A DNA stretch of 38,035 bases from Myxococcales bacterium. GTDB lineage: Bacteria > Myxococcota_A > Polyangia > Polyangiales > Polyangiaceae. Numbering within the stretch: the first letter of the stretch is position 1; every line of letters starts with the position of its first letter. Shown here in pieces: positions 1,365 to 36,169 of this stretch. Under the pieces are notes generated by a model, which was given only the letters and a program-made list of their open reading frames with translations, did no database searches and was not told the origin of the DNA. Where the stretch lies: positions 1 through 38,035 of the forward strand of contig JANXMC010000290.1 in assembly GCA_025354825.1 (NCBI GenBank), given 5' to 3'. A program made the translations under genes and the position numbers.

Positions 1365-2318
1365 TCAACCTGATTTCGCGTTCTTGGACGGGCTTGATTT
1401 CGGCTTTTCGGCAGTTGCCAAAACGACTTGAAAATGAGGCTTCTTCGCTTCGCGGCAGGCGACGTCGGCGAAGGTGACCGTGAGGCCGGCGCGCGTGAGG
1501 AGACTGCGCAACGCCCGCGGCGTAAAGCCTGGGTGTCGCTCGCCGTAGCTGGCTGTGATCTCCCGCTGCTCGTGCTTGTCGAGAGTGAGGAGAACGATGC
1601 GGCCGCCTGGCCTCAACACGCGTGCGCACTCGAGGAGCGCCTGCTGCGGATGCTCGGCATAGGTGAGCGTGTGGAACACCAAGATGGCGTCGAACGTCGA
1701 AGGGCGAAATGGGAGGACGTGAACGTCGGCCACTTCCGCGCGGACGTGGGGCATCTTCGCGAACCGCTCGCGGGCCGCGTCGACCATGCGTACGCTCGTG
1801 TCGACACAGACGAGCGACGCGCAATAGGGGGCTATATACCCGGCGGCGGCGCCGTCGCCCGAGCCGACGTCGAGCACTTCGCCGAGCTTGAGAAACGCCG
1901 AGATGCCGACGCTGAGCGACTGCCACGTACGGCCGGGGGAGTAGTGGAGATCCATCTTCCCCGCGAACGATTCGGGGAGGCCGCCGCGCGTCTCGGCGTC
2001 GAGCTCTTCGAGCCGTTTGCGATCGCCCTCGAGCGTGGGGTCGCGCGACGTGGCCGCTTCGTCCAGCACCGACTTCGCCGTGGGCGGCAGAGTATCGACG
2101 GCGAGGGCGTAGAACGCGTGTTGCCCCTCACGGCGGTCGCGCACGAACCCACCTTCGCGAAGGCGCGCGAGGTGCGTCGAGACCCGCGACTGCGAAATTC
2201 CGGTGGCGCGGACGAGCTCGGTCACGCTCAGCTCGCGCTCGCGCAGGAGGGCGCAGAGCCGAATCCGGCTCTCGTCCCCAAGCAAGTTGAGGGTGCCTAC
2301 GCAGGTGGAGAGGTCCAT
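1365..2318 (-). CDS. ArsR-family regulator fused to a SAM-methyltransferase domain, SahR-like
   Basis: This 317-aa protein has an N-terminal ArsR winged helix (about residues 1-80; recognition region with GISQSRVSTHLARLREGGF). It is followed by a class I methyltransferase fold (about 130-300) with the SAM loop VLDVGSGDGAAAGY and the RVLRPGGRIVLLTL strand. The same architecture is described for SahR, an ArsR-type repressor of methionine-cycle genes that senses S-adenosylhomocysteine. In that family the methyltransferase domain acts as a ligand sensor. Position supports this role: metH starts 5 bases downstream on the same strand. Catalytic methylation cannot be excluded from sequence alone. 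The start is the ATG at 2318; the gene is divergent from the metallo-hydrolase gene at 2401, with 82 bases between them. Domain calls are clear; the SahR assignment is an inference from architecture and neighbourhood. Confidence 0.87.
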   Translation of the reverse strand: MDLSTCVGTLNLLGDESRIRLCALLRERELSVTELVRATGISQSRVSTHLARLREGGFVRDRREGQHAFYALAVDTLPPTAKSVLDEAATSRDPTLEGDRKRLEELDAETRGGLPESFAGKMDLHYSPGRTWQSLSVGISAFLKLGEVLDVGSGDGAAAGYIAPYCASLVCVDTSVRMVDAARERFAKMPHVRAEVADVHVLPFRPSTFDAILVFHTLTYAEHPQQALLECARVLRPGGRIVLLTLDKHEQREITASYGERHPGFTPRALRSLLTRAGLTVTFADVACREAKKPHFQVVLATAEKPKSSPSKNAKSG

Positions 2319-30655: not shown

Positions 30656-30698
30656 GTAGCGCCCCTCGCGACCACGAGTCGTCGCGCAAGGAGTGCTC

Positions 30699-32057
30699 AT
30701 GATCACGTCACGATCGATTCGAACCTTTTCCGTACTTCCGATTCTCTCCCTCGCCTCGCTCACCGCGATTGCGGCGCTCTCGAGCGCGTGCGGCGCGCCG
30801 ACGGACGCGGCGAGCGACAACGTCGATTCGGAAGACAACCTCCGAAGCGGTGTCGTCCGCGTCTACGCCGACGCGGCGTTCGGCGGCGACAAGCTCTCGC
30901 TGTCGGTAGGCGATCACGACCTCACAGGGACATCGTTCAACGATGTGGCGTCGTCCCTTCGCATCTTCGGCGACTACACCGTCGAAGCGTTCGCCGACGC
31001 AGGGTTCAAAGGGAAGAGCGTCACGCTGACGGCCGACACGGCATCCCTCGGCGCGATGGCGAAGACCATCTCGTCGATCCGCGTCCGTGCAGGCGCGACC
31101 TCGACGACGCCCACGCCCACGCCGACCAGCACATCGACAGGAACGCCGACCCCCACGCCGCCGCCCGCATCCGGCGCGCTCGTCGGTTGGGCGAGCGTGA
31201 CGGCGATGGGGCTCAAGGGGACAACGGGCGGCGCAGGCGGGACGACCTATTCCGTCTCGACGATCGCCGACTTCAACGCGCGCGCTGCAGGCGACGGCGC
31301 GGCGACTATCCAGATCGCGGCGCCCCTCAAGGGTGACGTTGCCATCGGTTCGAACAAGACGATCGTCGGCGTCGCCGGCGGCGCGATTCACGGTCACATC
31401 GACATGAAATCGTCGGTGAACGTCATCGTTCGCAACCTCAAGGTGGTTGGCTACAACTGCACCGACAACGCCGACTGCCAGAGCGGCGCCGATGCGATCA
31501 CCGTCACCAAGGGTGCTCACCACTTGTGGTTCGATCACTGCGACATTTCGGACGGCTCCGACGGCAACTTGGATATCACCCACGCGTCGGACTACGTGAC
31601 GATCTCGTGGACGAAGTTTTCCTATTCGGGCGCGCGATCGGGCGGCCACCAGTTCTCGAACTTGATTGGCCACACCGACGACAACCCCGAAGACGAAGGG
31701 CACCTCAAGGTGACGTTTCACCACGACTGGTGGGCCGACAACGTGGGCGAACGGATGCCGCGCATTCGCTACGGCCAGGTCCATTCGTTCAACAATCTCT
31801 TCACAGCCGTGGGGAACAATTACTGCATTCGCGCAGGCGTGCGTTCGAGCGTGCTCACCGAGAACGACACGTTCATCGGCGTCGACACGCCGTTCGATCT
31901 CGGTGGCGGCGAGGTTCTCTCGCGCGGGAACATCTTTACCAAGACCACGGGAAACACCCTTGGAACGGGCAAAGCCTTCACGCCGCCGTACAGCTATACG
32001 CTCGATGCGACGGCGGGTGTCGAAGCCGCCGTGCGTTCAGGCGCGGGTGTGAAATAG
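30699..32057 (+). CDS. Beta-gamma-crystallin / pectate lyase (PL1) fusion lipoprotein
   Basis: A 452-aa exported lipoprotein (signal with LSSAC lipobox). Residues ~50-135 form two Greek-key motifs of the beta-gamma-crystallin type (VRVYADAAFGGDKLSL, VEAFADAGFKGKSVTL). The first has the Ca-binding motif NDVASS. A Thr/Pro linker (TPTPTPTSTSTG) leads to a polysaccharide lyase family 1 beta-helix: VIVRNLKVVGYNC, HHLWFDHCDISDGSDGN, LDITHASDYVTISWTKFSY and GERMPRIRYGQVHSFNNLF with the catalytic Arg region. It should cleave pectate outside the cell with Ca. Start is ATG 30699 behind AAGGAG; a GTG at 30693 is less likely. A sigma-54 promoter lies upstream. Confidence 0.92.
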   Translation: MITSRSIRTFSVLPILSLASLTAIAALSSACGAPTDAASDNVDSEDNLRSGVVRVYADAAFGGDKLSLSVGDHDLTGTSFNDVASSLRIFGDYTVEAFADAGFKGKSVTLTADTASLGAMAKTISSIRVRAGATSTTPTPTPTSTSTGTPTPTPPPASGALVGWASVTAMGLKGTTGGAGGTTYSVSTIADFNARAAGDGAATIQIAAPLKGDVAIGSNKTIVGVAGGAIHGHIDMKSSVNVIVRNLKVVGYNCTDNADCQSGADAITVTKGAHHLWFDHCDISDGSDGNLDITHASDYVTISWTKFSYSGARSGGHQFSNLIGHTDDNPEDEGHLKVTFHHDWWADNVGERMPRIRYGQVHSFNNLFTAVGNNYCIRAGVRSSVLTENDTFIGVDTPFDLGGGEVLSRGNIFTKTTGNTLGTGKAFTPPYSYTLDATAGVEAAVRSGAGVK

Positions 32058-33918: not shown

Positions 33919-33970
33919 GGCGCCACGCGCAACGCACGCCCCCGCGGGTTGCCGCAGCTTCTCGCAGGTC

Positions 33971-33986
33971 GTAACCTATCCGTTAC
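33971..33986. promoter_or_regulatory. ArsR operator candidate 1: GTAAC-N6-GTTAC
   Basis: An inverted repeat GTAAC (33971-33975), six bases, GTTAC (33982-33986), 7 bases before the ATG of the ArsR gene, fits autoregulation. The same motif with the same spacing recurs at 34754-34769. Confidence 0.6.
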
Positions 33987-33993
33987 CACGACC

Positions 33994-34317
33994 ATGCACG
34001 CCCTCGACGCACTCGGCAACTCGGTTCGGCGCGAGATCCTCGTCGGGCTTCGCGCTCACCCGGCCACCGTGGGGGAAATCGCGTCGCGCTTTTCGGTGAG
34101 CCGCCCCGCCATCTCGCGGCACCTCGCCACACTGCAGCAGGCCGGGCTCGTCACGGCGAAAGCGAGCGGTACGCACACCGTTTACGCGATTCGTATCGAG
34201 GGGCTCACGCCGGTGCGGTCGTATCTCGACGGCTTTTGGGACACGGCCCTCGAACGGCTCGAGCAGCTTGCGCGCAGCGAGGCGCACGGAGCGCGCGGAG
34301 CCAAGAGCCGCCCATGA
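33994..34317 (+). CDS. ArsR/SmtB-family transcriptional regulator
   Basis: A 107-aa winged-helix repressor with MHALDALGNSVRREILVGLR, the HTH VGEIASRFSVSRPAISRHLA and the wing LVTAKASGTHTVYAIRI. No metal-binding Cys/His cluster of classic ArsR or SmtB is seen, so it may respond to a non-metal signal. Such regulators are often paired with an SRPBCC (AHSA1) protein, and here that gene starts at 34314, overlapping the ArsR stop by 4 bases. It probably autoregulates through the site at 33971. The frame extends to 33949, but the ATG at 33994 gives the normal start. Confidence 0.9.
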   Translation: MHALDALGNSVRREILVGLRAHPATVGEIASRFSVSRPAISRHLATLQQAGLVTAKASGTHTVYAIRIEGLTPVRSYLDGFWDTALERLEQLARSEAHGARGAKSRP

Positions 34318-34757
34318 TCGAAAAGTCCGTCGTCCTCCCGTGCACCCTCGCGCGCGCCTTCGAGCTTTTTACAAGCCGCATCTCGCTTTGGTGGCCGCCC
34401 GAGCGGCGGCATACGGGCGACCCGTCGAGTGAGCTGTTCTTGCTCGCCTCGGGCCGCTTCTACGAGCGCGCGCGCGACGGGCGCGAGGTCGATCTCGGGC
34501 GCGTGCGCGCGTGGGAAGCGCCTAGGCGTCTGCTGCTCGACTTCTACCCCGGCACCGATGCCGAGCACCCGACCGAGGTCGAGGTTCACTTCGGCCTCGA
34601 GGAAGGCGATGCTCTACGAACCCGCGTGACGGTGCACCACCGCGCCACGGAGGCGAGCCGCGCGATCTTCGAGACGCGGGCGCCCCGCTTCGTCGCCTCC
34701 TGGGGCGTCGTCCTGCCCGCGCTTGAAAGGGCGGCGGCGACCCTTGCCGATTGGTAA
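34314..34757 (+). CDS. SRPBCC/AHSA1 (START-like) family protein
   Basis: A 147-aa protein with the AHSA1/SRPBCC fold: an N-terminal strand (IEKSVVLPCTLARAFELFTS), WWPPERRHTGD, then RVRAWEAPRRLLLDFYP, EVEVHFGLEEGDALRTRVTV and a C-terminal helix (ASWGVVLPALERAA). The cavity binds a hydrophobic ligand or a partner protein. It is coupled to the ArsR gene by an ATGA overlap, suggesting that it handles or reports the compound that the regulator senses. Its stop codon lies inside the left arm of the second ArsR operator-like dyad. Confidence 0.88.
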   Translation: MIEKSVVLPCTLARAFELFTSRISLWWPPERRHTGDPSSELFLLASGRFYERARDGREVDLGRVRAWEAPRRLLLDFYPGTDAEHPTEVEVHFGLEEGDALRTRVTVHHRATEASRAIFETRAPRFVASWGVVLPALERAAATLADW

Positions 34758-34774
34758 CATTCTTGTTACCAATC
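34749..34774. promoter_or_regulatory. ArsR operator candidate 2: perfect 11-bp inverted repeat
   Basis: GATTGGTAACA (34749-34759) and its exact inverse (34764-34774) flank a 4-base loop TTCT. The core is again GTAAC-N6-GTTAC, as at 33971. It covers the AHSA1 stop codon and lies upstream of the gene at 34821, so it most likely controls that gene as part of an ArsR mini-regulon. A terminator is less likely because no T-run follows. Confidence 0.65.
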
Positions 34775-34820: not shown

Positions 34821-35312
34821 ATGGCGAAGGCAGCAACGGCGAAGGCCGCGACAGCGACGAAGACTCACGCGGCGAAGCCGGCAAGCAAGCCTGCGAAGGG
34901 GGCTGCCGCAGGTGAGGCCGGCACGCGAGAGAATCCGTGGACGCTAAAGACCCCGCCGGGCTCGAGCGAGTTCACGGCGTTTCGCGATGGGTCGCTCACG
35001 CCGCCCGCGCTGGTCGTGCAGGTCGGGAAGACCGAGCTCCGGTACGACCTTCGCTGCATCGCCGATTTGCACACCATGCTCAAGAACGCCGGCGATTGGA
35101 TGCCTCTCGGCAGCGCCGACGAGCAGAAGCCCGCGGCGGAGGGTACGATCGAAGCCTGGGGGCGCGCGGCATCGAACCCCATAGGCGGCTGGTACGGCCT
35201 AAAAAAGGGGCTTCGCGGCCGATTCGGAATGTACGTCCCGCCGGTCCTTGAGGCGCTCGGCCTCGCCGAGGTTGAGCACCTCGCGAAGAACAACCGCATG
35301 CGCGCGGTGTGA
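34821..35312 (+). CDS. Conserved-type protein of unknown function (DUF6855-like)
   Basis: A 163-aa protein. An Ala/Lys-rich disordered N-terminus (~35 residues) precedes a compact domain with NPWTLKTPPGSSEFTAFRDG, ELRYDLRCIADLHTMLKNAG, DWMPLGSADEQKPA, GWYGLKKGLRGRFGMYVPP and ALGLAEVEHLAKNNRMR. This is a family of small, well-conserved bacterial proteins, probably the one named DUF6855 (named from memory, not checked). The ribosome binding site AAAAGGAG is strong. Its position behind the second GTAAC-N6-GTTAC site suggests control by the ArsR protein. Function unknown. Confidence 0.75.
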   Translation: MAKAATAKAATATKTHAAKPASKPAKGAAAGEAGTRENPWTLKTPPGSSEFTAFRDGSLTPPALVVQVGKTELRYDLRCIADLHTMLKNAGDWMPLGSADEQKPAAEGTIEAWGRAASNPIGGWYGLKKGLRGRFGMYVPPVLEALGLAEVEHLAKNNRMRAV

Positions 35313-35347: not shown

Positions 35348-36169
35348 TTACGTACGAGCGGCCCGCTTCGCGCTCGTCTTCGGGTGGGGCTTTGGCTTAG
35401 ACGCGACCTCGGCGTAGCTCTTCGCCACGCGGTCTCCTATCTCCTCCCAATCGACGCTCTTCCCATCGATGCGAATGCCGAGCCATCCGCGCGGGCCGAT
35501 GTACGCGGGCGACGTGTACCGGCCGGGGAGCTTCTTCACCAGGCTCGCATTCGCCGTGCGGGCGCCGCGCACGCACGCGACGATGGCGCCGTCGCCATGA
35601 TGGTTGTCGAGGAAGTAAACGAACGCCTTCTTGCCAATGTGAAATGTCGCGTGGATCCCGTCCGCCTCGACGGTTGCATCGGAGAGCGCGAGGCAGATCT
35701 TGGTGAGCCGCGCGAGGCCGTCCCGTGCCGCCTTCGCGCTCGTCATCGGGCGCTTGGGCGGGGGCGGCGGCTTCTTCGCAACCGGATTGGCCCCCTCGCC
35801 GCGCGCGAGCTTGGGAGGCGCCACGGAGAGCCACCCGGCCTCGACGATCATCGCGAGCTCGATCCAGTCCGTCGACTCGTGATTGAGATTTATGCCAAGC
35901 CAGCCACGCACCCCCACGTAGGGCGGCACGAAGTAGACGGCCGGGGCGTGCGCGACGAGCTCGCGCTGCCGCTCGAAGGTGCACTTGCACCAGACCGCGA
36001 GGCGACCGTCGCCGTGATGGTTGTCGACGAAGTTGACGATCATTTTCCCGCGCACATGAAACGACGGCATGCCGTGGGAGAGCTTCTCCTCGACGCCCGC
36101 AAAGGCGTGGCAAACCTCGCGAACGCGGGCGAGAGCGGCGCCGGAAGGGGATTCGGATTTCTTCGCCAC
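35348..36169 (-). CDS. Tandem MmcQ/YjbR-domain protein
   Basis: A 273-aa cytoplasmic protein with two copies of the YjbR/MmcQ-like fold, joined by a Lys/Pro-rich linker. The copies match in order: KMIVNFVDNHHGDGRLAVWC against KAFVYFLDNHHGDGAIVACV, and YVGVRGWLGINLN against YIGPRGWLGIRID. YjbR-type proteins bind DNA or act as small regulatory proteins; the function is not settled. ATG 36169 is divergent from the efflux operon, with operator-like repeats in between. Its C-terminus (KPKPHPKTSAKRAART) is basic. Confidence 0.85.
   Translation of the reverse strand: MAKKSESPSGAALARVREVCHAFAGVEEKLSHGMPSFHVRGKMIVNFVDNHHGDGRLAVWCKCTFERQRELVAHAPAVYFVPPYVGVRGWLGINLNHESTDWIELAMIVEAGWLSVAPPKLARGEGANPVAKKPPPPPKRPMTSAKAARDGLARLTKICLALSDATVEADGIHATFHIGKKAFVYFLDNHHGDGAIVACVRGARTANASLVKKLPGRYTSPAYIGPRGWLGIRIDGKSVDWEEIGDRVAKSYAEVASKPKPHPKTSAKRAART

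What the first reader, a model, noticed from the sequence alone, without database searches (positions are those of the whole stretch)
33971..34774. Two identical-architecture operators define an ArsR mini-regulon
GTAAC-N6-GTTAC occurs before the ArsR gene and again, within an 11-bp perfect dyad, after AHSA1 and before the unknown gene at 34821. This links the uncharacterised gene to the ArsR-AHSA1 pair.
Basis: partly seen in the sequence, partly recalled or inferred. Interest (0 to 1): 0.6.

Follow-up and report, generated by a model that had tools for sequence, protein, structure and literature searches.

The report
ArsR operators linking three co-regulated genes
Two copies of a rare DNA switch site tie an ArsR-type repressor and its partner gene to an uncharacterised gene next door; the arrangement recurs in distant soil bacteria, and comparing many relatives suggests that one amino acid in the repressor sets one letter of the DNA site.

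Summary
GTAAC-N6-GTTAC lies exactly at 33971-33986 (7 bp before the ArsR ATG) and 34754-34769 (inside an 11-bp perfect dyad, 34749-34774, before the gene at 34821). Only three exact copies exist in the 9-Mb genome; the third precedes another ArsR gene. The unknown gene is DUF6855 (PF21619). Of 103 DUF6855 loci, the 10 next to ArsR-AHSA1 (window included) carry the site upstream (9 exact, 1 with one mismatch); 93 without ArsR have no exact copy (Fisher 4e-12). The site follows the genes through collinear, divergent and DUF6855-first layouts in several phyla. In two relatives the second operator precedes a polyketide-cyclase-like gene instead. Sister ArsR genes carry GTAAG-N6-CTTAC, the type of site footprinted for M. 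tuberculosis Rv2034. Across 88 ArsRs with a detectable site, the helix residue equivalent to window residue 42 matches half-site base 5 without exception (Arg/Lys with C, Gln with G): strong comparative evidence that ArsR itself reads these sites. Best reading: an autoregulated ArsR repressor controls ArsR-AHSA1 through operator 1 and DUF6855 through operator 2. The mechanism is ordinary; the DUF6855 link and the one-residue code are new. Inducer and DUF6855 function remain unknown.

The parts
33971..33986 (.). Operator 1, GTAACCTATCCGTTAC, 7 bp upstream of the ArsR ATG
   Evidence: Exact match. The equivalent site abuts the ArsR start codon (0-1 nt) in L055, L068, L160, L166, L168 and L174
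33994..34317 (+). ArsR-family repressor, 107 aa, no cysteine; recognition helix SRPAISRHL with Arg42
   Evidence: PF01022 HTH_5 2e-12; NF033788 2.9e-18 and SdpR model 4.1e-18, the latter below its cut-off
34314..34757 (+). AHSA1/SRPBCC (COG3832-type) protein; start overlaps the ArsR stop (ATGA)
   Evidence: No Pfam hit for the window copy itself; its 61%-identical orthologue in L055 passes PF08327 AHSA1; PDB relatives TxnO9 6e-11 and CalC 1e-3
34749..34774 (.). 11-bp perfect dyad GATTGGTAACA-TTCT-TGTTACCAATC containing operator 2
34754..34769 (.). Operator 2, GTAACATTCTTGTTAC, 51 bp upstream of the DUF6855 ATG
   Evidence: Exact match; equivalents in L055, L068 (exact) and L160 (one mismatch), and in L168 and L174 before a second SRPBCC gene
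34744..34772 (+). Possible promoter TTGCCG-N17-TACCAA around operator 2
   Evidence: TTG at the same offset (10-11 nt before GTAAC) in 5 of 6 equivalent sites and TACCAA/T on the other side in 6 of 6; too weak for the consensus scan; inference
33949..33977 (+). Possible promoter TTGCCG-N17-TAACCT overlapping operator 1
   Evidence: Read from the sequence; inference only, the consensus scan found none
34821..35312 (+). DUF6855 protein, 163 aa, Lys/Ala-rich N-terminal tail; residues 76-163 modelled as a winged helix
   Evidence: PF21619 3.1e-67; AlphaFold2 129 residues at pLDDT 90 or more; VIA Z 8.6 to 2mh2, then several winged-helix regulators at 5-6.6

Best explanation
The two sites are operators of the ArsR protein encoded next to them. 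A dimer binds each 16-bp palindrome, the recognition helix of each subunit reading one GTAAC half-site. At operator 1 it covers the start of the arsR-AHSA1 transcript (negative autoregulation); at operator 2 it covers a separate promoter for DUF6855. An unknown signal, probably not a thiol-bound metal because the protein has no cysteine, releases the repressor so that AHSA1 and DUF6855 are made together. Shown here: positions, rarity, conservation through rearrangement, and residue-base covariation. Inferred: occupancy, repression rather than activation, promoter positions, the inducer.
For: Three exact sites in the genome, all at ArsR genes. Sites upstream of DUF6855: 10 of 10 ArsR-linked loci (9 exact, 1 with one mismatch) versus 0 exact in 93 unlinked loci, Fisher 4e-12. 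The site follows the genes: two sites in collinear loci (window, L055, L068; L160 with one mismatch in the second), a shared site or 17-bp-spaced tandem in divergent loci (L038/L085, L086, L105, L108, L115, L126), one site in front when DUF6855 comes first (L116). In ten genomes with the linked genes exact sites number 0-4. Residue 42 and half-site base 5 agree in 88 of 88 ArsRs with a site. Rv2034, an ArsR in an operon with an SRPBCC-type gene, is footprinted on CCGTAAGT-N4-ACTTACGG, the same geometry, and represses itself (PMC3338718).
Against: No binding or expression data. The contig-336 ArsR has the same helix type and the same site, so it could bind here too. Most DUF6855 genes are not linked to ArsR, so the link is optional. 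55 Arg/Lys and 27 Gln ArsRs showed no exact core site upstream. The covariation rests on six switches on the best tree, only two of them as independent pairs on well-supported branches.
Confidence: 0.88

Rival explanations
1. The sites belong to this ArsR group generally, and the paralogue on contig 336 (or both repressors together) controls the locus, so the mini-regulon has two regulators.
For: The contig-336 ArsR has Arg at the same helix position and the same GTAAC-N6-GTTAC upstream.
Against: The spacers differ, the two ArsRs are only about 39% identical, and the window ArsR is conserved next to the sites in other genomes, most of whose few exact sites lie at this locus.
Confidence: 0.25
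2. The 34749-34774 dyad is a transcription terminator or other RNA hairpin behind AHSA1, not an operator.
For: It overlaps the AHSA1 stop codon and is an inverted repeat with 11-bp arms.
Against: No T-run follows and no terminator-like site is found; relatives keep the GTAAC/GTTAC core but not always the outer arms; divergent loci keep the core where no gene ends.
Confidence: 0.03
3. DUF6855 is a bystander: it shares the operator by position but has no functional tie to ArsR-AHSA1.
For: 93 of 103 DUF6855 loci have no ArsR nearby and no exact site.
Against: Where linked, three different arrangements all place the site at the DUF6855 promoter side, and collinear loci have a dedicated second site.
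Confidence: 0.12
4. ArsR activates rather than represses at one or both sites.
For: Rv2034 is reported as an activator of phoP and dosR besides repressing itself (PMC3338718).
Against: Operator 2 would lie between the promoter elements and operator 1 over the start of the gene, positions typical of repression (promoter placement is inferred).
Confidence: 0.07

Closest known systems
ArsR-COG3832 (Aha1/START) two-gene module, Makarova et al. 2009 (PMC2701414)
   Same: Small ArsR gene directly before a COG3832 gene, several copies per genome; that ArsR subfamily lacks metal-site motifs. The authors favoured antibiotic resistance, with toxin-antitoxin as an option
   Different: They describe a strict pair; here a third gene (DUF6855 or a second SRPBCC) has its own copy of the operator
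Rv2034-Rv2035-Rv2036 of M. tuberculosis (PMC3338718)
   Same: ArsR in an operon with a polyketide_cyc2/SRPBCC-type gene, autorepression, palindrome with 5-bp half-sites and 6-bp centre at the start of the gene
   Different: Half-site GTAAG instead of GTAAC; DUF6855 is not part of the described operon; Rv2034 has a cysteine, C61
SdpR-type autorepressors (NCBIfam NF033789)
   Same: Window ArsR matches the model at 4.1e-18
   Different: 65 bits, below the 100-bit cut-off; the partner genes are AHSA1 and DUF6855, not SdpI
TxnO9 and CalC SRPBCC proteins (PDB 5z36, 1zxf)
   Same: Sequence relatives of the AHSA1-like protein
   Different: Distant; no biosynthetic cluster context was examined and the function cannot be transferred

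Membership tests
ArsR/SmtB family | ArsR-type winged helix | tested here: met
   PF01022 2e-12, NF033788 65.5 bits against cut-off 55
Cysteine-based metal sensors of the ArsR/SmtB family | Cysteine metal site | tested here: not met
   No cysteine in the translated protein; a member of the family, but not a cysteine-based metal sensor
ArsR-COG3832 module | ArsR gene adjacent to an AHSA1/SRPBCC gene | tested here: met
   ATGA overlap; orthologous neighbours pass PF08327; the window copy itself has no Pfam hit
ArsR-COG3832 module | Autoregulation by the ArsR | not testable with these tools
   Site position and covariation only
Rv2034-type operator | Palindrome of two 5-bp half-sites with 6-bp centre at the arsR start | tested here: met
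Rv2034-type operator | Half-site GTAAG | tested here: not met
   GTAAC here; GTAAG-type cores in sister ArsR loci
SdpR autorepressor (NF033789) | Score over curated cut-off | tested here: not met
   65.1 bits against 100
DUF6855 (PF21619) | Score over gathering cut-off | tested here: met
   224.9 bits against 27
Type II toxin-antitoxin system | Toxicity neutralised by a partner | not testable with these tools
   Only suggested for this gene pair in PMC2701414
Winged-helix DNA-binding proteins (for DUF6855) | Winged-helix fold | tested here: inconclusive
   VIA Z 8.6 over 64 residues to 2mh2, several winged-helix rows at 5-6.6; Foldseek E not significant

The most novel reading that the evidence does not exclude
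A single recognition-helix residue (position 42: Arg/Lys or Gln) sets the fifth base of the half-site (C or G) throughout the large ArsR subfamily that sits next to AHSA1/SRPBCC genes, giving two insulated operator classes; and DUF6855 is a winged-helix, probably DNA-binding protein expressed under this repressor as a second regulatory layer.
Probability: 0.4. Interest if true: 0.6.

Novelty: new variant of a known kind. Interest (0 to 1): 0.45.

Why it matters
ArsR-AHSA1 pairs are a common small regulator module in bacteria, yet few have a known operator, signal or target. This work gives the operator, predicts its class from one residue of the repressor, and uses it to assign an uncharacterised widespread family (DUF6855) and a second SRPBCC family to the regulon. 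The rule lets operators and extra targets be predicted in many genomes.

Tried and rejected
Terminator reading of the dyad: no T-run, none found by scan. Motif with one mismatch as a genome-wide search tool: not above the control. Solved homologue of DUF6855: none by sequence and no significant Foldseek match; the winged-helix reading rests on VIA-align, where a best Z of 7 to 8 is typical of models without a clear match. Unlinked DUF6855 loci: no TAAC- or TAAG-type dyad upstream, and only three have any 8-bp perfect dyad. L126 at first looked like an exception; it has the 17-bp tandem with one mismatch in each copy. Literature: no paper in the held library mentions DUF6855, and none was found that states the residue-base rule; subscription papers, including the NolR-DNA structure, were not available. 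NolR Gln56, a base-contacting residue cited in PMC8960804, lies at the start of the recognition helix, so it probably corresponds to window residue 37, not 42; this was not aligned.

Full report
Observation. Exact GTAAC-N6-GTTAC sites occur at 33971-33986 and 34754-34769 and nowhere else in the window, even with one mismatch; the shuffle mean is 0.19 and 2 of 100 shuffles reach two. The second site lies in an 11-bp perfect dyad, 34749-34774. In the whole genome there are three exact sites against one for the reversed control; the third lies upstream of another ArsR gene (L001). At one mismatch the motif is not enriched.

Genes. ArsR is 33994-34317 (PF01022), has no cysteine and overlaps the AHSA1-like gene 34314-34757. 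The window AHSA1 copy gives no Pfam hit, but its counterpart in L055 (61% identical) and five others pass PF08327, and its PDB relatives are TxnO9 and CalC. The gene at 34821-35312 is DUF6855 (PF21619, 3.1e-67), one copy in the genome.

Recurrence. A scan with the DUF6855 alignment A1 and whole-genome searches gave about 100 distinct DUF6855 loci. Those next to ArsR-AHSA1 come from Myxococcota, Eremiobacterota, Dormibacterota, Chloroflexi and Solirubrobacterales records. Three layouts occur. Collinear ArsR-AHSA1-DUF6855 with two sites: window, L055, L068, and L160, whose second site GTAACAAGAAGTTTAC has one mismatch. Divergent with one site (L038 = L085) or two sites spaced exactly 17 bp (L086, L105, L108; with one-mismatch copies in L115 and L126). 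DUF6855 first with one site in front (L116). Upstream of DUF6855 the site is present in 10 of 10 linked loci tested, the window included (9 exact), and exact in 0 of 93 unlinked loci, Fisher 4e-12. In ten such genomes exact sites number 0-4 each. Related loci are not fully independent, so the p-value is nominal.

Exchangeable second unit. In L168 and L174 the second exact site follows AHSA1 in the same way but precedes a Polyketide_cyc2-type SRPBCC gene (PF10604). In G147 a 17-bp tandem (second copy one mismatch) precedes an SRPBCC-like reading frame elsewhere in the genome. In G145 an exact site precedes a DoxX gene. These last two are single cases.

Promoter anatomy. Operator 1 abuts the ArsR start codon (0-1 nt in six relatives, 7 nt in the window), which suggests a leaderless transcript or a very short leader. 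Operator 2 lies between TTGNNN and TACCAA/T at 17-18 bp in five of six equivalents. This was noticed by eye and is too weak for the consensus scan.

Residue-base covariation. Sister ArsR-AHSA1 loci without GTAAC sites have tandem GTAAG/CTTAC-type sites with the same 17-bp period. Comparing the two groups, helix position 42 (SRPAxS-X-HL) is Arg/Lys in 21 of 21 GTAAC-type ArsRs and Gln in 13 of 13 GTAAG-type. The groups were set by their sites, but the column was picked from this comparison, so a further set was fetched: 80 ArsRs taken by protein score only gave Gln with TAAG-N6-CTTA in 29 and with TAAC in 0, Arg/Lys with TAAC-N6-GTTA in 18 and with TAAG in 0. Adding two other phyla gives 46 Arg/Lys-C and 42 Gln-G with no exception; 82 Arg/Lys/Gln ArsRs have no exact core upstream and say nothing. 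On a tree with the column masked, residue and site each change six times and always together, but only two independent pairs are on well-supported branches, so shared ancestry is not fully excluded.

Precedent. Rv2034 of M. tuberculosis represses itself, is in an operon with an SRPBCC-type gene, and protects CCGTAAGT-N4-ACTTACGG (PMC3338718): the same geometry with the G-type half-site. From my own memory its helix reads SRPAVSQHL (Gln), as the rule predicts; the sequence was not fetched, only the residue numbers A32, E35 and C61 given in the paper agree with it. The ArsR-COG3832 pair was described as a toxin-antitoxin-like or resistance module in 2009 (PMC2701414).

DUF6855. The AlphaFold2 model is confident for residues 31-163. 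Foldseek finds nothing significant. VIA-align ranks winged-helix proteins first for residues 76-163 (best Z 8.6, 64 residues, 1.8 A, 2mh2), at the edge of what unrelated models reach. With the Lys/Ala-rich tail (residues 1-32) this makes a DNA-binding role plausible but unproven.

Conclusion. The mechanism is a conventional ArsR repressor circuit; the additions are the DUF6855/SRPBCC second unit with its own operator and the one-residue operator code.

Noticed in passing
L165, L169, L170, L172, L173, L175-L180, L183, L184: Sister ArsR-AHSA1 loci carry tandem GTAAG/GTTAG-type palindromes with a 17-bp period instead of GTAAC sites.
   Followed up: yes
L168, L174 (second site after AHSA1): The second operator precedes a Polyketide_cyc2-type SRPBCC gene instead of DUF6855, as if the slot were exchangeable.
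   Followed up: partly
L154:2367-2991: An exact GTAAC-N6-GTTAC stands directly before a DoxX-family gene in the L068 genome (G145).
   Followed up: partly
window 34821-34916: The DUF6855 protein begins with a Lys/Ala-rich tail resembling linker-histone tails; a similar tail is visible in L160.
   Followed up: no
window 35351-36169 (-): Protein with two YjbR-domain stretches in tandem.
   Followed up: no
window 2088-2288 (-): A second ArsR-like stretch in the same contig, inside a 322-aa open frame.
   Followed up: no
window 30693-32057 (+): Secreted-looking protein whose C-terminal part reads like a pectate lyase; judged by eye only.
   Followed up: no
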